NCBI GenBank assembly: GCA_017477005.1
Contig: JAFUXY010000453.1
Coordinates: 1-7,037 of the forward strand
DNA: 7,037 nucleotides
Origin: Lachnospiraceae bacterium
Lineage (GTDB): Bacteria; Bacillota; Clostridia; Lachnospirales; Lachnospiraceae
Direction of reading: 5' to 3'
Positions 4-7,037 of this stretch are shown here, in pieces. The translations under genes and the position numbers were made by a program. The notes under the pieces were generated by a model. The model worked only from the letters and a program-made list of their open reading frames with translations. It had not been told where the DNA came from and did not search any database. Each line of letters starts with the position of its first letter. Positions within the stretch are counted from its first letter, which is position 1.

Positions 4-204
4 TCAAATATCGTCATGTCCGCTTCGCCCGCTTTCCGCCCAGATTTGCTCAAATTCTTCTGTATGTACACCCAATGATTGCAACTGAGCCTTTAGGAAT
101 TTTTCTTGATATTCTATCTCTTTGTCCCTGTTTTCTGAATATTTTATCCTCAGCAAATCCGCATATTCACCAATTCTTATATCTTTAAGAATCTCATTTT
201 CCAT
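4..204 (-). CDS. Small protein A, unknown function (divergent family member)
   Basis: This is a 66-residue, highly charged, probably helical soluble protein with no signal peptide or membrane segment. I do not recognise its function. The segment LKAQLQSLGV (about residues 37-46) resembles LKVLLQTLGV of small protein D (7 of 10 identical). It aligns without gaps to small protein C from the shared IR pair to the GV pair, but only 11 of 51 residues match. Unlike the others it runs about 11 residues past the family tail and ends in GHDDI. The start is the ATG at 204, with AGGA about 10 bases upstream, 14 bases after the metG stop. An in-frame TTG at 223-225 overlaps the end of metG and would add seven residues, but is less likely. 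Family membership is an inference from the tail; that the frame is coding is fairly safe given spacing and ribosome site. Confidence 0.7.
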   Translation of the reverse strand: MENEILKDIRIGEYADLLRIKYSENRDKEIEYQEKFLKAQLQSLGVHTEEFEQIWAESGRSGHDDI

Positions 205-218
205 ATTTTTTGAATCCT

Positions 219-2210
219 TTAGCAAATTTCCGCCCCGCTCGGCATTTCCTTCTCAGGAGTCATTAGCGACAGATTTCCGTCAGCATCCTCCGCACAGAGC
301 AGCATCCCTTCGGACAGAAGCCCCGCCATCTTTGCAGGCTTCAAATTCACCAACACCATCACTTTCTTGCCAACCATTTCCTCTGGAGAATAGTATTTCT
401 GAATACCGCTCAAAATTTGCTTCGTTTCACTGCCGATTTTCACTTGCGAACAAAGCAGCTTCTTCGATTTCTTCACCTTCTCACAAGCAACAATCTCCCC
501 TACAGCAAACTGCAGCTTGTCAAAATCCTCATAAGATATTTCCGGCTTCAAAGAGAACTCTATTTCCTCTGAATCCGTTTCATCCTTCTCTTCTTTGGCC
601 GAATCGTCTTCTACTGCTGCCTGCTGTACCTCTTGCAGCTTCTCAACCTCTTGCAAAACCTTTTCCAAATCCAACCGCTCAAACAAAATTTCCGGCTTTT
701 CCGTCACAGAATTACCATTTTGATAATGTCCAAATGTGTTTAATTCGTCAAACGGAGTTTCCTCTGCACCGAGCTGTTGCAAAATCTTTTGAGAAGTTTC
801 CGGCATAAAGCTCTTCAAAAGGCAGGCCTCCACACGAATTCCCTCTACCAAATTATAGAGTACCGTTGAAAGACGATCTTTTTTCGCCTCATCCTTGGCC
901 AACACCCACGGCTCAGTCTCATCAATATATTTATTCAATCGGCGAAATGCCGCAAAAATAGCCGATATAGAATCTGCCACTCGCAGCTCCTTCATCTTTT
1001 CGATACAGATGTCACGGGTTCCCTCAATCACCGATTTCAAATCTGCGTCTATTTCTTCCTGCCCGCCAAACTCGCCCTTGTCGCACACCACGCCCCCAAA
1101 ATATTTGTTTGACATAGCGATCGTGCGATTGACCAGATTACCAAGCGTATTAGCCAAATCTGAATTGATTCGTTCCACCAAAAGCTCCCACGAAATCACC
1201 CCGTCATTATCGAAAGGCATTTCATGCAGCACAAAATAACGCACCGCATCCACGCCAAACAGATTGACGAGATCATCCGCATAAATGACATTTCCTCTTG
1301 ATTTTGACATTTTCCCATCGGACTGAATCAACCAAGGATGGCCAAATACCTGCTTTGGCAGCGGCACATCGAGTGCCATCAAAAAAATAGGCCAATAGAT
1401 TGTATGGAAGCGAATAATATCCTTGCCGATCAAATGCAAATCCGCCGGCCAATACTTTTCAAACATTTCCGTAGAATGACCGTCAGCGTCATATCCGATG
1501 CCGGTAATATAATTCGTCAAAGCATCCAGCCACACATAGACCACATGCTTTGGATCAAAATCAACAGGAATCCCCCAGGAAAACGATGTCCGCGACACAC
1601 AGAGATCCTGCAAGCCCGGCAAAAGGAAATTGTTCATCATCTCATTTCTGCGAGAAACCGGCTGGATAAACTCAGGATGCGCATTGATATGATCAATCAA
1701 ACGGTCGACATACTTCGACATTTTGAAAAAATATGCCTCTTCGCTGGCTCGCTGCACCGGGCGTCCACAGTCTGGACACCTCCCATCCACCAACTGAGAC
1801 TCTGTCCAAAAGGATTCATCCGGCACGCAATACCATCCTTCGTAATTGCTTTTATAAATATCCCCCTTGTCATAAAGCTTCTTGAAAATCTTCTGAACCT
1901 GCTTCTCATGATCCTCATCCGTAGTCCGAATAAAACGATCATAGGATGAATTCATCAAGTCCCAAATCCGTTTGACCTCACCAGAAATGTTATCCACATA
2001 TTCCTTTGGCGAAATCCCCAGTTCTTTTGCTTTTTCTTCTATTTTTTGTCCATGTTCATCCGTACCCGTCTGAAAACGCACATCATAGCCTTCTTCCCTG
2101 CGAAAACGTGCGATCGCATCCGCAAGGACGATCTCATACGTGTTGCCGATATGTGGCTTTCCCGAAGTGTACGCAATTGCAGTGGTAATGTAATATCTTC
2201 CCTTATCCAT
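219..2210 (-). CDS. metG: Methionyl-tRNA synthetase with C-terminal tRNA-binding domain
   Basis: Class I cytosolic aminoacyl-tRNA synthetase that charges tRNA-Met with methionine using ATP; 663 residues, usual for the long bacterial form. The N-terminal Rossmann fold has the HIGH-type motif HIGN at residues 20-23, and KMSKS lies at 300-304. The zinc-knuckle region has C128, D131, C145 and C148, so the second ligand position of the first pair is Asp instead of Cys. A helical anticodon-binding region follows (about 340-500). An acidic, low-complexity linker (about 520-556) leads to an OB-fold tRNA-binding domain of the Trbp111/EMAP type (about 560-663), which in this family promotes dimerisation and tRNA binding. 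The ATG at 2210 follows a GAAGGAACAGG ribosome site. The gene sits 21 bases after small protein B and 14 bases before small protein A. No T-box leader is visible. Confidence 0.97.
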   Translation of the reverse strand: MDKGRYYITTAIAYTSGKPHIGNTYEIVLADAIARFRREEGYDVRFQTGTDEHGQKIEEKAKELGISPKEYVDNISGEVKRIWDLMNSSYDRFIRTTDEDHEKQVQKIFKKLYDKGDIYKSNYEGWYCVPDESFWTESQLVDGRCPDCGRPVQRASEEAYFFKMSKYVDRLIDHINAHPEFIQPVSRRNEMMNNFLLPGLQDLCVSRTSFSWGIPVDFDPKHVVYVWLDALTNYITGIGYDADGHSTEMFEKYWPADLHLIGKDIIRFHTIYWPIFLMALDVPLPKQVFGHPWLIQSDGKMSKSRGNVIYADDLVNLFGVDAVRYFVLHEMPFDNDGVISWELLVERINSDLANTLGNLVNRTIAMSNKYFGGVVCDKGEFGGQEEIDADLKSVIEGTRDICIEKMKELRVADSISAIFAAFRRLNKYIDETEPWVLAKDEAKKDRLSTVLYNLVEGIRVEACLLKSFMPETSQKILQQLGAEETPFDELNTFGHYQNGNSVTEKPEILFERLDLEKVLQEVEKLQEVQQAAVEDDSAKEEKDETDSEEIEFSLKPEISYEDFDKLQFAVGEIVACEKVKKSKKLLCSQVKIGSETKQILSGIQKYYSPEEMVGKKVMVLVNLKPAKMAGLLSEGMLLCAEDADGNLSLMTPEKEMPSGAEIC

Positions 2211-2231
2211 CCTGTTCCTTCTTCCTCACAC

Positions 2232-2423
2232 CTATTCCTTGATTTCATCTATGTCAGTCATATTGACCCCTGCTACTCCCAAAATGCTTTTCAATGCCTT
2301 ATATCTTTTTTTCAAATGCTCATAAGTCTCTGTCGCATTCTCTTTTCGAGCCAATTTCATAGATTCCTGTATATCCTTAAATTCTATCGTATCACGTTCT
2401 ACAATCTCAAGACTTATTGCCAT
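2232..2423 (-). CDS. Small protein B, unknown function (family with D and E)
   Basis: A 63-residue charged, helical-looking protein of unknown function. It aligns without gaps to small protein D over all 63 residues (29 identical by hand count) and to the first 53 residues of E (24 identical). Shared features are an initial MA, the segment KENATETYEHLKKRY (28-42 region), and the tail GVNMTDIDEIKE. Where D and E have T-L-G-V, B has V-A-G-V. By hand count 68 of 192 bases are G or C (35%), lower than the neighbouring metG by eye. The ribosome site AGGGAAG lies 5 bases before the ATG and overlaps the stop codon of the tail remnant at 2434-2480. The stop is 21 bases before metG, so the two are probably co-transcribed. 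No catalytic motif, cysteine pair or membrane segment is present. Confidence 0.85.
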   Translation of the reverse strand: MAISLEIVERDTIEFKDIQESMKLARKENATETYEHLKKRYKALKSILGVAGVNMTDIDEIKE

Positions 2424-2433
2424 TTTTTCTTCC

Positions 2434-2480
2434 CTATTCCTTTATCTCATCGATTTCTGCCATATTGACCCCTGCTACTC
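2434..2480 (-). pseudogene. Tail remnant R1 of a small protein B duplicate
   Basis: On the minus strand this encodes VAGVNMAEIDEIKE followed by TAG, matching the last 14 residues of small protein B at 12 positions. One codon upstream the same frame meets TGA (2482-2484), so only the tail survives. The remnant shares V-A-G-V-N-M with B, where D has T-L-G-V-N-L, so it is closest to B. Its first six bases in transcription order also serve, one base out of frame, as the final Glu codon and TAG stop of the zinc-ribbon gene. Its own stop lies in the ribosome site of B. Likely origin: tandem duplication of B, then a deletion joining the upstream copy to the zinc-ribbon gene (inference). Confidence 0.75.
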
Positions 2481-2846
2481 TTCATGCATAAACGCTCCAC
2501 ATTTCCCGCAATAGTCCGAATCCTGCGACACCTGCACCCCACAGCGAGGACAATGCCTGGCGCCCTTCTTGTTGGCCAGCTCCGCACGAAGGTCATCGAG
2601 CTCTTCCAACAGGTTCTTCACCTCCGTGAAGCTGTTCAGTCCACCCTCTTCCTCTCGTTCATCGTCCTTGTGTTCCATATAATATTTTTTTCCGAGCTCC
2701 ATATACAGCTCATTCAGATACCCCTCGCGAGTCCGTATTTCATAACGCAACTTCGCCCTCTCCGATAGATCTCCGGCTGCCTCCTTCACTTCTCGTCCCG
2801 CAAAAATCACCGCATCCTGTATCTTGTCAAAAAAATTGTTTTCCAT
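2475..2846 (-). CDS. Zinc-ribbon protein with N-terminal coiled-coil region
   Basis: A 123-residue cytosolic protein. The N-terminal half is helical and charged, beginning MENNFFDKI; residues about 38-93 are rich in Glu, Lys and Leu and likely form a coiled coil, interrupted by an acidic patch (DDEREEEGG). The C-terminus is a compact zinc ribbon with Cys at 99, 102, 113 and 116 (CxxC, ten residues, CxxC). Proteins of this layout are common and uncharacterised in Clostridia; a regulatory or scaffolding role is possible but not shown. The ATG at 2846 is chosen because GGGAGGG lies 5 bases upstream; the longer TTG start at 2867 would place that site inside the coding region. It follows small protein C by 17 bases. 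Its last codon and stop come from the repeat at 2434-2480, so its extreme C-terminus may be altered, although the ribbon itself is complete. Confidence 0.85.
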   Translation of the reverse strand: MENNFFDKIQDAVIFAGREVKEAAGDLSERAKLRYEIRTREGYLNELYMELGKKYYMEHKDDEREEEGGLNSFTEVKNLLEELDDLRAELANKKGARHCPRCGVQVSQDSDYCGKCGAFMHEE

Positions 2847-2851
2847 AGCTA

Positions 2852-2858
2852 CCCTCCC
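2852..2858 (-). promoter_or_regulatory. Ribosome binding site fixing the zinc-ribbon start
   Basis: GGGAGGG on the minus strand, 5 bases before the ATG at 2846. It decides between the ATG and the upstream in-frame TTG at 2865-2867, since with the TTG start these bases would encode Gly-Arg. Confidence 0.75.
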
Positions 2859-2863
2859 TTTTT

Positions 2864-3034
2864 TCAATCCAAACTCAGTTCTTGAAGATTCACCCCATAG
2901 GTTTCCAATTTCACTGCAGATTCCTTGATTTCATAATCCAGTACCTTGTTCTCCTGCCCTCCGTTATTTGCCTTGATCAATTGCAATCGGCAATAATTCC
3001 TTATTTCAATTGTCTTCATCTCTTCGATTGTCAT
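2864..3034 (-). CDS. Small protein C, unknown function, 56 residues
   Basis: A short open frame beginning MTIEEMKTIEIRNY and ending GVNLQELSLD, then TGA. The tail GVNLQEL matches GVNLSEL of small protein D at six of seven positions. The body (ENKVLDYEIKESAVKLETYGV) fits small protein A best, with DKEIEY facing NKVLDY and the same distance to the GV pair. It is charged and helical-looking, with one cysteine and an NNGG turn in the middle, and no membrane segment. A good ribosome site, GGGGAGA, lies 7 bases before the ATG. It starts 20 bases after the stop of D and ends 17 bases before the zinc-ribbon ATG, which fits a real operon gene. It was translated by hand from the minus strand. Function unknown; membership of the A/C branch is an inference from weak similarity. 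Confidence 0.72.
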   Translation of the reverse strand: MTIEEMKTIEIRNYCRLQLIKANNGGQENKVLDYEIKESAVKLETYGVNLQELSLD

Positions 3035-3054
3035 GACAAAATCTCCCCAATAAC

Positions 3055-3246
3055 CTATTCCTTGATCCTATCCAACTCCGACAAATTTACACCCAATGTC
3101 TGCAGCAAAACCTTCAGCTCTATGTACCTGTCTTTTAAGAGTTCATACGTCTTTTGGGCATTTTCTTCCTTTGCCGACTTCATTATTTTTTGCACACTAC
3201 TAAACTCATTGATTGCATCTTTAATTGTATCTGAACTATTTGCCAT
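3055..3246 (-). CDS. Small protein D, unknown function (best-preserved family member)
   Basis: A 63-residue charged, helical-looking protein beginning MANSSDTIKD and ending GVNLSELDRIKE. It matches small protein E at 31 of the first 53 residues without gaps, including RYIELKVLL and TLGV, and B at 29 of 63. Conserved positions include Ala25, Glu28, Ala30, Thr33, Leu37-Lys38, Arg40-Tyr41, Leu44-Lys45, Leu48 and Gly52-Val53; a heptad-like spacing of Leu/Ile/Val suggests a helix pair or an oligomer, which is an inference. The ATG at 3246 is chosen for its strong GGAGGTGA site 8 bases upstream; an in-frame start at 3306 would extend into the end of the antiporter gene and lacks family support. The antiporter stop is part of that ribosome site, so translation is probably coupled. 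Function unknown. Confidence 0.87.
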   Translation of the reverse strand: MANSSDTIKDAINEFSSVQKIMKSAKEENAQKTYELLKDRYIELKVLLQTLGVNLSELDRIKE

Positions 3247-3254
3247 ACCGTCCT

Positions 3255-3262
3255 TCACCTCC
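3255..3262 (-). promoter_or_regulatory. Ribosome binding site of small protein D, overlapping the antiporter stop
   Basis: GGAGGTGA, an almost complete anti-16S match, sits 8 bases before the ATG at 3246. Its last three bases are the TGA stop of the antiporter gene, so a ribosome finishing the antiporter lands on this site. It fixes the start of D and suggests translational coupling. Confidence 0.8.
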
Positions 3263-4193
3263 CAACAATATACACCATATACCCTGCATAGACCGCCACC
3301 ATGCAAGCCCCTTCAATACGGTTGATTTCCTTTCTCGTAATGCAAAACACCCACACAACAGCCGACACAATCAAAAGCACAAAGATATCCATGACATTAT
3401 CCTTTGCAAACGCAATCGGAGACAATGATGCGGCCACTCCCAAAATCAAAAGAATATTGAAGATATTCGATCCAATCACATTACCCACGGCCATATCAAT
3501 TTCGCCCTTCTTTGTCGCTACCAAAGAAGTCACAAATTCCGGAAGACTTGTCCCCAAAGCTACGATCGTCAAGCCAACCAACGTTTGAGATACGCCAAAG
3601 GCCAAAGCAATTGTAACAGCGCCATCTACAACCCAATCTCCTCCCAGCTTGATAGCGACAGCGCCTCCCACAATAAAAATCACACTCTTGAGAATAGAAA
3701 TTTCTTCTCCAGACTCCACTTCTTCTGTATTTTGATCCTTCCTCGCCGAAACAACCATCAAAGCCAAAAAAGCGACAAAAACTGCCAAAAACAGAATTCC
3801 ATCCAATTGAGACAAACTGCTCCCGGCGATTCCAAGCCCCAAAAGCATTGCCAAGCTTAGCATATAAATTGGATAATCCCGTTTCAGCGTTTCAACAGAC
3901 ACTGAAAGCGATCGGATAAAAGCACTTGCACCCAAAATAACCAGGATATTGAACAAATCCGAACCTACTACATTCGACACAGACAAGGAATTGTTGCCAG
4001 TCATAGAGGCAGATACACTGACTGAAAGCTCCGGAAGACTTGTTCCCATCGCAACAATCGTCATTCCTATGATCAATGTAGGTACAGACAGTTTTTTCGC
4101 TATAGCTGAACTTCCGTCTACAAAAAAATCCGCTCCTTTGATCAAAAAAACAAATCCAGCGAGCAGCTTACAAACTGCCAGTATTACATTCAT
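3255..4193 (-). CDS. Calcium/sodium antiporter, CaxA/YrbG type
   Basis: Inner-membrane cation exchanger of the CaCA family, 312 residues, a normal length for bacterial members with about ten membrane segments. The two inverted alpha repeats are clear. Alpha-1 carries GTSLPE at residues 50-55 and GSDLFN at 77-82; alpha-2 carries GTSLPE at 214-219 and GSNIFN at 241-246. The Glu residues of both GTSLPE motifs and the Asp/Asn residues of the second motifs form the ion site in this family. A charged cytoplasmic loop (about 150-168) separates the halves. Family members exchange Na+ for Ca2+; the true substrate here is not proven by sequence. The ATG at 4193 lies 6 bases after the PAP2 stop, and its GAGGAG ribosome site is within the last codons of PAP2, so coupling is likely. 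Small protein D follows after 8 bases. Confidence 0.95.
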   Translation of the reverse strand: MNVILAVCKLLAGFVFLIKGADFFVDGSSAIAKKLSVPTLIIGMTIVAMGTSLPELSVSVSASMTGNNSLSVSNVVGSDLFNILVILGASAFIRSLSVSVETLKRDYPIYMLSLAMLLGLGIAGSSLSQLDGILFLAVFVAFLALMVVSARKDQNTEEVESGEEISILKSVIFIVGGAVAIKLGGDWVVDGAVTIALAFGVSQTLVGLTIVALGTSLPEFVTSLVATKKGEIDMAVGNVIGSNIFNILLILGVAASLSPIAFAKDNVMDIFVLLIVSAVVWVFCITRKEINRIEGACMVAVYAGYMVYIVGR

Positions 4194-4199
4194 TGTGTT

Positions 4200-4757
4200 T
4201 CAATCTCCTCTTCTCTGCAAAACAGGTATTTTGAAGTCTGGATATTTTTTGTAAAAATCTTTCACCAATAATCCAGCCAAAAGACCGGAAACGATTCCGG
4301 TAAAAGCACCCACCAACACATCGGTGGGAAAATGTACGAATAAATACAGCCTGGACAAGCCAATCAAGGCCGCCAACAAAAAGGCCAGCATCCCCCAGCC
4401 CCTGCTATATTGAAAAATGGCTGTCGCTGATGCAAAAGAAAACGACGTATGGCCTGAAGGGAATGAAAAATCATCTGGTATATCCACCAACAATGGAACC
4501 GAAGGTTCGATCCAGCAAGGCCTGTCTCTCGCTACCATATGCTTCAGGATCATATTGCACAACAAATAAGAAAAGCAAAACGCACCCATACCAGTTAGAC
4601 CTATTCGTTTGTCTTTTGCAAACAAAAAGACAAGTAATATAAGGATAATCCAACCAATTCCCTTTTCACAGAACATGGTAAGTCCCAAAGCAATTTTATC
4701 CATCAAAGGTCCATGTAGTGTTTGAAACCAATGCAGCAAATCAAATTCCCAATCCAT
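4200..4757 (-). CDS. PAP2-family membrane phosphatase (undecaprenyl-diphosphatase-like)
   Basis: A 185-residue integral membrane phosphatase with several hydrophobic segments (about 34-47, 54-70, 105-117, 122-135 and 146-165). All three lipid-phosphatase motifs are intact: K72-x6-R79-P80; P100-S101-G102-H103; and S135-R136-x5-H142-x3-D146. H103 and H142 are the expected phospho-acceptor and nucleophile-activating histidines, with D146 completing the relay. Family members remove phosphate from lipid pyrophosphates or phosphates, often undecaprenyl pyrophosphate in wall synthesis (BcrC/YbjG style); phosphatidylglycerophosphate or another lipid phosphate is also possible. The ATG at 4757 follows AGGGAG by 7 bases. 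It lies 60 bases after tyrS and 6 before the antiporter. No function linking it to its neighbours is evident. Confidence 0.93.
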   Translation of the reverse strand: MDWEFDLLHWFQTLHGPLMDKIALGLTMFCEKGIGWIILILLVFLFAKDKRIGLTGMGAFCFSYLLCNMILKHMVARDRPCWIEPSVPLLVDIPDDFSFPSGHTSFSFASATAIFQYSRGWGMLAFLLAALIGLSRLYLFVHFPTDVLVGAFTGIVSGLLAGLLVKDFYKKYPDFKIPVLQRRGD

Positions 4758-4817
4758 ATCTCATCTCCCTGCATTATCCAATATTTCAAAATTTCGAAAG
4801 AAAAAACGATTCTTATT

Positions 4818-6038
4818 TCACGCAACAGTTACTTTTGTGAATTTTTTCTTTCCTCTCCGCAAAATGAATTCCTCTTCAAAATCCGCCTTTGAATAAACGG
4901 CTTTTGTGTCAGTAACTTTTTCTCCATTGACGGAAACTCCTCCCTGCTCCACGGCCCGGCGCGCTTCATTCCGCGAAGCACACAATCCCGCCGCCACCAA
5001 AAGCGGCAAGAGTCCTATTTGATCTTCCGAAAAATTTTCCTCTTTCAACTCCTGTGTCGGCATATTTTCTGAAGAGCCGCCAGCAAATACTGAAACAGCG
5101 GCCTTCTGCGCCTTCTTCGCTTCATCCTCTCCATGTACCAAACTGGTCAGCTCCAAAGCCAAGATTTCCTTTGCTTCATTTAGCTTTTGTCCCTCCCAGT
5201 CCTCCATTTTCGCCACTTCTTCCAAAGGCAAAAATGTCAGCATTTTGATACATTTTCGGACATCCGCGTCATTGACATTGCGCCAATATTGATAAAAATC
5301 ATAAGGAGAAGTCTTATCCGGATCCAACCATACGGCACCGGACTGTGTCTTTCCCATCTTTTTTCCTTCAGAATTCAAGAGAAGGCAAATCGTCATCGCA
5401 TAGGCGTCTTTTCCAAGTTTGCGACGAATCAGCTCCGTACCAGCGAGCATATTCGACCACTGATCATCCCCGCCAAACTGCATATTGCAGCCAAATTCTT
5501 GATATAGACGATAAAAATCATAGGCCTGCATGATCATATAGTTAAATTCGAAGAAGGAAAGCCCTCTTTCCATACGGTTTTTGTAACATTCCGCCGTCAG
5601 CATCCGATTGACTGAAAAATGAGTGCCCACTTCCCGCAAAAGTTCAATATAATTCAAATCCAACAGCCAGTCGGCATTGTTCACAATACGAGCCTTGTCT
5701 TCTCCAAATTCAATAAACCGCTCCATTTGCTTTTTGAAGCAGGAAATATTGTGATCGATTGTCTCTCGCGTCATCATTTGGCGCATATCGGTCCGACCGG
5801 AGGGATCGCCGATCATCCCAGTGCCGCCGCCCAACAAGGCAATTGGCTTGTTTCCTGCCTGCTGCAGCCGCTTCATCAGACAAAGCGCCATGAAATGTCC
5901 AACATGCAGGCTATCTGCAGTTGGATCAAAACCAATATAAAATGTGGCTTTTCCTTCATTGATAAGATCCCGGATCTCTGTCTCATCCGTCACCTGGGCA
6001 ATCAAGCCCCTCTCCTGCAATTCTTCAAAAATCTGCAT
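4818..6038 (-). CDS. tyrS: Tyrosyl-tRNA synthetase
   Basis: Class I synthetase that charges tRNA-Tyr with tyrosine; 406 residues, within the usual bacterial range. The HIGH-type motif is HVGH at residues 45-48 and the KMSKS-type motif is KMGKT at 227-231, which matches the KFGKT style of the E. coli-like TyrS branch. The tyrosine pocket signature is visible as YIGFDPTADSLHVGH and as the YDFYRLYQ and MQFGGDDQW segments (173-194). A C-terminal S4 RNA-binding domain occupies about 340-406 (LPLLVAAGLCASRNEARRAV and following). The ATG at 6038 has an AAGGAG site 8 bases upstream. The 102-base leader shows no T-box consensus or hairpin, unlike many Firmicute tyrS genes, so expression may depend on an upstream promoter. 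The gene is followed by PAP2 after 60 bases. Confidence 0.97.
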   Translation of the reverse strand: MQIFEELQERGLIAQVTDETEIRDLINEGKATFYIGFDPTADSLHVGHFMALCLMKRLQQAGNKPIALLGGGTGMIGDPSGRTDMRQMMTRETIDHNISCFKKQMERFIEFGEDKARIVNNADWLLDLNYIELLREVGTHFSVNRMLTAECYKNRMERGLSFFEFNYMIMQAYDFYRLYQEFGCNMQFGGDDQWSNMLAGTELIRRKLGKDAYAMTICLLLNSEGKKMGKTQSGAVWLDPDKTSPYDFYQYWRNVNDADVRKCIKMLTFLPLEEVAKMEDWEGQKLNEAKEILALELTSLVHGEDEAKKAQKAAVSVFAGGSSENMPTQELKEENFSEDQIGLLPLLVAAGLCASRNEARRAVEQGGVSVNGEKVTDTKAVYSKADFEEEFILRRGKKKFTKVTVA

Positions 6039-6087
6039 TTTTATTTCTCCTTTTATTGAGAATACAAAACTCTGTTGAAATAAGAAA

Positions 6088-6117
6088 CTTTTCCTTAAAA
6101 CGATCCAACTCAGATAG
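6088..6117 (-). pseudogene. Tail remnant R2 of the small-protein family
   Basis: In the gap between small protein E and tyrS, the minus strand reads LSELDRFKE followed by AAG where family members have TAG. This matches LSELDRIKE, the tail of small protein D (3055-3084), at eight of nine residues and 22 of 30 bases. The preceding codons (F-L-I) differ from G-V-N by one base each, and TGA interrupts the frame at 6130-6132. It is in a different frame from E. It appears to be a decayed copy of the family tail. Confidence 0.6.
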
Positions 6118-6140
6118 AATTAGAAATCTTCAATAAAATA

Positions 6141-6323
6141 TCACACTATTTCTCTTAGGTTCCTTACCCCCAATGTATTCAATAACACTTTCAACTCAAT
6201 ATATCTCTTTTTCAATCTCTGAAAAGTCCTATCTGCCTTCTCTTCCTTTGCCAAAAACATATATTCCTGTATGTTTCTGATTTCCTTAATTGAATCTACG
6301 ATTATTTCCGATCTGTTTGCCAT
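6141..6323 (-). CDS. Small protein E, unknown function, shortened tail
   Basis: A 60-residue charged, helical-looking protein beginning MANRSEIIVD. It matches small protein D at 31 of the first 53 residues with no gap, including AKEE at 25-28 and RYIELKVLL at 40-48. After the shared TLGV it departs: the tail is RNLREIV instead of NLSELDRIKE, with one extra residue and an early TGA. A family-type tail (R2) lies 23 bases past the stop in another frame, so E may be a recently altered copy that still codes for the main helical part. The ATG at 6323 has an AGGAAGGGA site upstream and follows the aldolase stop by 13 bases, implying co-transcription with it. No function is recognised. Confidence 0.8.
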   Translation of the reverse strand: MANRSEIIVDSIKEIRNIQEYMFLAKEEKADRTFQRLKKRYIELKVLLNTLGVRNLREIV

Positions 6324-6336
6324 ATTGATTCCCTTC

Positions 6337-7037
6337 CTACTGCTGAATCAAAAGCAGCGTCATACCACCAATCTCCTGGTCACAGAATGCGGAACACATA
6401 TTTCCATCTTCATCGAAATGAGAGTGCGGATTGTCAAACGTCAGACCTTTGGTCTGCAAATACGCCATCGCGCGTCCCAAATGATAGGTACGAACCGCAA
6501 TATGACCATGCAATCCAGGACCTCCCGGTCGTACCCCTTCGAAAAATCCACCTCCAAAATAGCCTTCCGCATCCTCTTCGAGCATTCCATCAAAGATGAA
6601 CGCAACATCCTCCGCAGCACGGCGAGCCTCTTCATCCTTCGGGAAATTGATCCCAATATGATCAAAGGAAAATCCAAGCATCAGACGCACAGCTCTCTGA
6701 CATGAACGGCGTATGCCCTCCATATCACCCTTTTTAATCATTTCCTGAGGCACCATCCAGTTGCCACCCACGGCCAGCACACGATTTGACTTCAAATAAT
6801 TTGCGACATTTCCTTCGTTCAAGCCACCGCTCGGCATGAACTTCAATCCGGGATATGGTTCGCTCATAGCCTTCAGCCCGGCAATCCCACCATTTGATTC
6901 TGCCGGGAAGAACTTCACCAAAGACAGGCCCAACCGCAGCGCTGTCTCTATATCCGTTGGCGTGCTGACACCCGGTATGACAGGAATATCTTTTTCAAGA
7001 CAGTATCTCACTACTTTTTCATAGATACCAGGACTCA
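6337..7037 (-). CDS. KDPG/KHG aldolase fused to a VOC-type domain, 5' end outside window
   Basis: Partial gene; the frame stays open through the window end, and 232 complete codons are visible. The first half is a class I aldolase of the Eda family, splitting 2-keto-3-deoxy-6-phosphogluconate and/or 2-keto-4-hydroxyglutarate to pyruvate. Visible hallmarks are SPGIYE, IPVIPGVSTPTD, the Schiff-base lysine in VKFFPAE (visible residue 41), MPSGGLNE and AVGGNWMVP. The catalytic N-terminal part before SPG is missing. From about visible residue 122 a second domain of about 110 residues begins FDHIGINF and continues with LHGHIAV and QEIGGMTLLL, resembling a glyoxalase/VOC fold with candidate metal ligands at the His and Glu of these motifs. 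Similar two-domain aldolases occur in Clostridia; the role of the second domain is unknown to me. A GTG at 7009-7011 is internal, not the start. Small protein E follows by 13 bases. Confidence 0.88.
   Translation of the reverse strand, partial: SPGIYEKVVRYCLEKDIPVIPGVSTPTDIETALRLGLSLVKFFPAESNGGIAGLKAMSEPYPGLKFMPSGGLNEGNVANYLKSNRVLAVGGNWMVPQEMIKKGDMEGIRRSCQRAVRLMLGFSFDHIGINFPKDEEARRAAEDVAFIFDGMLEEDAEGYFGGGFFEGVRPGGPGLHGHIAVRTYHLGRAMAYLQTKGLTFDNPHSHFDEDGNMCSAFCDQEIGGMTLLLIQQ

What the first reader, a model, noticed from the sequence alone, without database searches (positions are those of the whole stretch)
4..6323. Five small proteins of one apparent family interspersed among housekeeping genes
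Seen: A (4-204), B (2232-2423), C (2864-3034), D (3055-3246) and E (6141-6323) are 56-66 residues, charged, on the same strand, each with a ribosome site and short spacing. B, D and E align without gaps through the LGV region (45-58% identity by hand count); A and C share the Gly-Val tail more weakly. Five paralogues in 7 kb, spread among unrelated genes instead of in one array, is unusual. I do not recognise the family. Inference: a lineage-specific small-protein family, either a repeatedly inserted coding cassette or a set of functional accessory subunits.
Basis: partly seen in the sequence, partly recalled or inferred. Interest (0 to 1): 0.8.

Follow-up and report, generated by a model that had tools for sequence, protein, structure and literature searches.

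The report
Scattered cassettes of tiny helical proteins
Five tiny genes wedged between housekeeping genes of a Lachnospiraceae bacterium belong to one large, unnamed family of small proteins, predicted to fold as helical hairpins, which in related bacteria often sits in one-gene units with matching ends that likely move about the genome.

Summary
B, D and E are one subfamily; C and A belong to two others. The family has no Pfam, NCBIfam, PHROGs or PADLOC match above cut-off. It is patchy: 50 of 396 genomes of the window's family, up to 11 copies each, in unrelated neighbourhoods. All five copies are missing from the same intervals in sister species G003 and G005. Selection is strong: median dN/dS 0.15 for one subfamily; a copy upstream of uvrB shows 3 non-synonymous against 27 synonymous changes between two species.

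In other genera many copies are free-standing units of about 340 bp: a TTTACAC/TATAAT promoter, one small ORF, a palindromic terminator. The left end is the inverted repeat of the right, and the two co-vary within an element. In Eubacterium plexicaudatum, leaders 73-91% identical precede coding sequences only 41-53% identical, and the same ends also enclose other small ORFs. I read these as one-gene cassettes with interchangeable cargo. The window's copies lack these ends and sit inside a host operon; that they arrived as cassettes is inferred. No transposase or target duplication was found. Function is unknown; a Rop-like dimer is a guess.

The parts
4..204 (-). A, third-subfamily member, 66 aa, 14 nt after metG
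2232..2423 (-). B, first-subfamily member, 63 aa, between the zinc-ribbon gene and metG
2434..2480 (-). remnant: last codons of a further first-subfamily copy (VAGVNMAEIDEIKE-stop); it runs into the stop codon of the zinc-ribbon gene
2864..3034 (-). C, second-subfamily member, 56 aa
   Evidence: fold model
3055..3246 (-). D, first-subfamily member, 63 aa, 8 nt after the Na/Ca exchanger-like gene
   Evidence: fold model
6082..6122 (-). remnant resembling the C-terminal tail of D (SELDRFKE), downstream of E
6141..6323 (-). E, first-subfamily member, 60 aa, tail altered and shortened, 13 nt after the aldolase gene

Best explanation
The five genes are members of one family of 55-66 residue proteins, predicted to be helical hairpins, that stand at places in this operon where two sister species have none and that likely spread as one-gene cassettes. 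Shown: in other genera many copies form a unit of about 340 bp made of a leader (TTTACAC to TATAAT promoter-like pair and ribosome site), one small ORF and a palindromic terminator-like repeat; the left end is the inverted repeat of the right end, and the two agree better within an element than across genomes. Shown: in Eubacterium plexicaudatum similar leaders precede very different family members, and the same ends also enclose other small ORFs, so ends and cargo have partly separate histories; one whole unit and one further small ORF differ between two close relatives at one place. Inferred: because the left end lies upstream of the promoter and so outside the transcript, the pairing of the ends is read by a DNA-acting enzyme supplied in trans, or is kept up by recombination. 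Inferred: the window's copies are old insertions that lost their own promoter and terminator and are now translated from the host operon. Inferred, weakest: the protein works as a dimeric four-helix bundle of the Rop shape, a small adaptor or RNA binder.
For: Missing copies at the same intervals in G003 and G005, for A and B also in G001 and G002. Promoter-like pair within 170 nt upstream of 81 of 129 copies against 15 of 17,699 control windows; palindrome downstream of members of all three subfamilies. End pattern (up to 3 mismatches): 30 hits in seven genomes, 18 of them in E. plexicaudatum, control 0. Co-variation of the two ends: 9.6 of 15 positions within an element, 6.6 across genomes, 4.8 shuffled; 0 of 5,000 permutations as high, one element per genome, 29 genomes. 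In 14 cross-subfamily pairs of 7 E. plexicaudatum copies leaders are 73-91% and coding sequences 41-53% identical. Other cargo in the same ends. Unit-sized differences in the pilT-comM interval of L040 and L041. Flanking ORFs: 331 clusters among 435. Purifying selection. Helical-hairpin models, pLDDT 92.0 for D and 94.0 for C.
Against: The window's genus has none of the ends: 0 hits in G000 and G005 and 0 promoter pairs in G000, G003, G005, so the cassette reading of A-E rests on relatives. Both ends were found for only 36 of 128 copies by a loose rule and 28 by the palindrome rule; many copies, some in E. plexicaudatum too, lack them. No target duplication was visible in 28 elements looked at by eye, no transposase was seen, and no base-exact empty site was found (the G022 site and its 4 copy-free congeners are too diverged). 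Missing copies in sisters could be losses. The promoter pair alone is not exclusive: of 30 genome-wide sites read, 13 precede a family gene, 4 another small ORF, and 10 longer, ordinary ORFs. A gapped within- versus between-genome comparison of leaders showed only a small difference. Rop is a non-significant match.
Confidence: 0.55

Rival explanations
1. An old paralogous family, vertically inherited with frequent loss. The shared leader and terminator are the mark of a regulon, kept by a common regulator; nothing is mobile.
For: The copy upstream of uvrB is shared by G000 and G003; coding sequences are old and saturated at silent sites; promoter and ribosome site are functional parts that selection could keep; ordinary genes also carry the promoter pair.
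Against: Up to 11 copies beside none in most genomes of the family; 331 neighbour clusters; the left end outside the transcript pairs with the right end element by element; the ends enclose unrelated small ORFs or stand alone.
Confidence: 0.28
2. Carriage by larger mobile elements (phages, integrative elements), the small genes being passengers.
For: Patchy spread; one unverified phage record with a second-subfamily gene.
Against: tblastn of one first-subfamily protein: no match in 72,556 plasmid records and none in 50,697 phage records; of one second-subfamily protein: 1 phage record (plasmids not searched with it). The viral-contig collection was not searched (one search failed). The window's copies lie among housekeeping genes.
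Confidence: 0.08
3. Pairing of the ends is kept by hairpin-driven correction between inverted repeats on one molecule, and units multiply by ordinary duplication and recombination between the repeated promoters and palindromes, without any transposase.
For: The unit-sized difference between L040 and L041 has its edges inside repeated promoters; no transposase seen; tail remnants in the window and L273 look like deletions.
Against: Does not by itself carry a unit to distant, unrelated sites.
Confidence: 0.2
4. Unrelated small ORFs that look alike by chance.
For: Charged helical sequences often give weak matches.
Against: E-values; dN/dS.
Confidence: 0.01

Closest known systems
Bacterial MITEs, in particular the ORF-bearing enterobacterial repeat units RU-1/2/3 (PMC2759123; abstract and outline seen)
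   Same: Short dispersed intergenic elements with inverted-repeat character, some holding reading frames
   Different: RU units are described there as 103-168 bp repeats whose frames occur inside annotated genes; here a complete, selected gene with its own promoter and terminator sits between the ends, and the cargo is exchanged
Integron gene cassettes (recalled)
   Same: Single-gene units with a constant recombination end and varied cargo, found in arrays
   Different: Cassettes here carry their own promoter; no integrase was seen; attC sites were not tested for; units are also scattered singly
REP/BIME palindromes and their transposases (PMC2817692, search listing with start of abstract)
   Same: Dispersed intergenic palindromes
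   Different: Here the palindromes frame a coding unit and number 18 pattern hits in the richest genome, where that abstract speaks of over 100 copies per genome
ColE1 Rop/Rom protein (PDB 1rop, 2ijk and others)
   Different: 9-10% identity, Foldseek E 1.0 or worse, no shared sequence signal; a common helical arrangement; RNA binding untested

Membership tests
MITE-like element (units in other genera) | Terminal inverted repeats | tested here: met
   both ends found in 28-36 of 128 copies only
MITE-like element (units in other genera) | Short length, no transposase inside | tested here: met
   28 units of 277-396 bp, median 341, each holding a small ORF
MITE-like element (units in other genera) | Target-site duplication | tested here: inconclusive
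   none visible by eye in 28 elements; no base-exact empty site to compare
MITE-like element (units in other genera) | An autonomous transposon with the same ends | tested here: inconclusive
   no pair of ends further apart than a unit stood out among 30 pattern hits in seven genomes; loci around single ends were read only 450 nt each way
MITE-like element (the window's copies) | Terminal inverted repeats | tested here: not met
   0 hits in G000 and G005; flanks read
Rop/Rom | Helical hairpin of about 60 residues | tested here: inconclusive
   predicted hairpins; match to Rop not significant
Rop/Rom | Homodimeric four-helix bundle that binds RNA | not testable with these tools
   only single chains can be modelled
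Any family of Pfam, NCBIfam, PHROGs or PADLOC | Profile match above cut-off | tested here: not met
   nothing above curated cut-offs in Pfam and NCBIfam; in PHROGs (27 members) best E 0.0075, no family matched by more than 2 members; none of 6 family members in PADLOC
Integron cassette | attC site and integrase | not tested
   recalled comparison only

The most novel reading that the evidence does not exclude
A cassette system of Lachnospiraceae in which paired inverted-repeat ends carrying promoter and terminator shuttle a pool of interchangeable, selected micro-proteins around the chromosome, like an integron of single small genes without a visible integrase; in the window's genus the cargo has been released from its cassette and wired into housekeeping operons.
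Probability: 0.33. Interest if true: 0.88.

Novelty: new variant of a known kind. Interest (0 to 1): 0.7.

Why it matters
The family is very large (7,504 clusters at E<=0.001 for one subfamily profile, capped) and unnamed. If the cassette reading holds, it shows a route by which selected small proteins are spread and built into operons, in a system where ends and cargo can be followed apart. It also warns that a small ORF inside an operon need not belong functionally to its neighbours.

Tried and rejected
Accessory subunits of the neighbours: rejected on neighbourhood diversity and on missing copies beside the same genes. One local expansion as the sole origin: not favoured by the tree (62 columns, many open forks), though D and E may be sisters (89/93, not starred). 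Phage or plasmid cargo: little support. A known RNA family at leader or terminator: none above its gathering score in the 8 loci searched; sub-threshold matches to plastid 3'UTR models near two units are taken as chance. Spo0E-like resemblance of the SELD motif (recalled): no Pfam match for any of 27 members. The promoter pair as an exclusive mark: rejected. The gapped comparison of leaders within and between genomes had a high background and showed 0.78-0.84 against 0.73-0.76; I rely on the ungapped one, which covers the 7 E. plexicaudatum copies that share one leader motif and leaves out those with another leader or none. A few of the 36 end pairs (for example L040, L043, L055, L071) look like wrong picks of the rule and were kept in the count. 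Sequence search of solved structures: best E 0.07. Literature: searches listed nothing on this family or cassette; only listings were seen, plus abstract and outline of PMC2759123. Most subscription papers are not held there.

Full report
1. The observation. D matches E at 58% and B at 46% identity. D alone, searched against the assembly, finds E, B and another copy on contig C429; the five-row profile gives 10 matches in this assembly at E<=0.01. C and A belong to two other subfamilies: C is up to 77% identical to database proteins; the first-subfamily profile matches a mixed second/third-subfamily profile at probability 92.8%, and A matches the latter at 97.3%. In a tree of 76 copies over 62 columns, B, D, E and A, C fall on two sides of a 100/100 branch; the five window copies need 4 label changes, at least 3 of them forced by starred branches, so one local burst does not explain them. 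Two remnants of C-terminal tails lie beside the zinc-ribbon gene and after E. The database also holds P0006, an 81-residue fusion of D with the end of C.

2. Extent. A mixed profile found 1,600 of 2,000 candidates at E<=0.01; a first-subfamily profile 7,504 of 7,999 scored candidates at E<=0.001, a capped list. None of the 120 rows shown in either listing carries a Pfam domain. Pfam and NCBIfam give nothing above cut-off, PHROGs and PADLOC nothing convincing. The window's family holds Parablautia intestinalis (the same match coordinates), which NCBI places in Lachnospiraceae. Of 396 genomes drawn from that family, at least 90% complete except the window's own, 50 have a match at E<=1e-5, with 1-11 matches each; class-wide it is 7 of 393, five in this family and two in one other genus.

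3. No fixed company. The up to six nearest ORFs of 80 named loci, 435 in all, fall into 331 clusters, 273 of them singletons, the largest of 16 (my own simple ORF caller). For pairs of loci with ORFs 85-90% identical, flank identity is 0.56 in the first 60 nt upstream, 0.40 in the first 60 nt downstream and about chance beyond.

4. The cassette. The conserved stretch upstream is a promoter-like pair, CTTTACAC and TATAAT; the one downstream a palindrome TGTAAAG..CTTTACA with a run of T. CTTTACA lies within 200 nt upstream in 52 of 73 testable loci and TGTAAAG within 200 nt downstream in 24 of 73, against 0.025 and 0.020 expected from 655 kb of the same loci. Over the copies gathered, 81 of 129 have the pair, against 15 of 17,699 control windows. 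The left end is the reverse complement of the right. As a pattern with up to 3 mismatches it hits 30 places in seven genomes, 18 in E. plexicaudatum, none in G000 and G005, its control none. Comparing coordinates I count 18 of the 30 beside intact family genes, 2 beside broken ones, 6 beside other small ORFs (one of these broken) and 4 alone. Twenty-eight units measure 277-396 bp, median 341. In 36 of 128 copies with both ends, the outer 15 nt agree at 9.6 positions within an element, 6.6 across genomes, 4.8 shuffled; with one element per genome (29) no permutation of 5,000 reached the observed mean. The left end lies upstream of the -35 box, so this pairing is not a stem of the unit's own transcript.

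5. Ends and cargo. Among 7 E. plexicaudatum copies that share one leader motif, the 14 pairs from different subfamilies have leaders 73-91% and coding sequences 41-53% identical. (NCBI files this species under Eubacteriaceae; that it is a Lachnospiraceae relative is recalled.) Other ORFs sit in the same frame: 97-103 aa and 87 aa ORFs at L271, L250, L245. Behind the promoter pair in 1.05 Mb of fetched loci, chosen for holding family genes, 75 of 85 sites precede a family ORF, 3 another small ORF and 7 none. Genome-wide in six genomes there are 60 sites; of the 30 read, 13 precede a family ORF, 4 another small ORF, 10 longer ORFs, and 3 no clear gene. L273 has end, promoter and only the last codons of a family gene. 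Between L040 and L041 the pilT-comM interval differs by one whole first-subfamily unit, with edges inside repeated promoters, and by one further small ORF. Gene names pilT and comM are by recall.

6. The window. The copies here have no such ends. Each starts 8-51 nt after the gene before it. In G003 and G005 the same gene order carries no family member at any of the sites; A and B are also missing in G001 and G002. G005 instead has a pair of ORFs (HEPN/MNT-like by recall) at the C/D site and a 48-aa ORF at the E site; that ORF has 142 database relatives of its own. G004 is rearranged there. Of 21 other copies in the genus, 10 lie within 60 nt after a same-strand gene, against 4 of 76 named loci elsewhere. 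One copy, upstream of uvrB (name by recall), is shared by G000 and G003. G022, of another genus, has one copy beside purD (name by recall) that its 4 congeners lack.

8. Judgement. The family and its selection are shown. That it travels as a cassette in other genera is well supported but lacks a base-exact empty site, a target duplication and an enzyme. That the window's copies came the same way is inferred. The molecular function is a guess.

Noticed in passing
L155 (G005:C69) 9765-9960: 48-aa ORF between the aldolase and tyrosyl-tRNA synthetase genes, where the window has E; 142 database relatives, so a second widespread small-protein family
   Followed up: partly
L155 (G005:C69) 5281-6053: Two ORFs between the exchanger and zinc-ribbon genes that look like an HEPN/MNT pair (recalled, not searched)
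   Followed up: no
P0006 (sequence): 81-residue database protein that fuses D with the C-terminal part of C; it could be a strain deletion or an assembly error
   Followed up: no
L258 1562-1807 and loci L204, L205, L210: Genes with a DnaJ-like start follow several E. plexicaudatum units; a J-domain-like gene also precedes the C429 copy of the window's genome
   Followed up: partly
window 6337-7035: The aldolase has about 120 residues beyond its KDPG-aldolase domain (Pfam covers residues 1-109 of 232)
   Followed up: no
L230 24-93: Pistol ribozyme match above gathering score in Parablautia intestinalis
   Followed up: no
L204 6228-6325: pemK RNA match above gathering score in E. plexicaudatum
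   Followed up: no
P0055, P0168: Family members that sources label Helicobacter bilis and RhmA aldolase; probably contamination and misannotation
   Followed up: no
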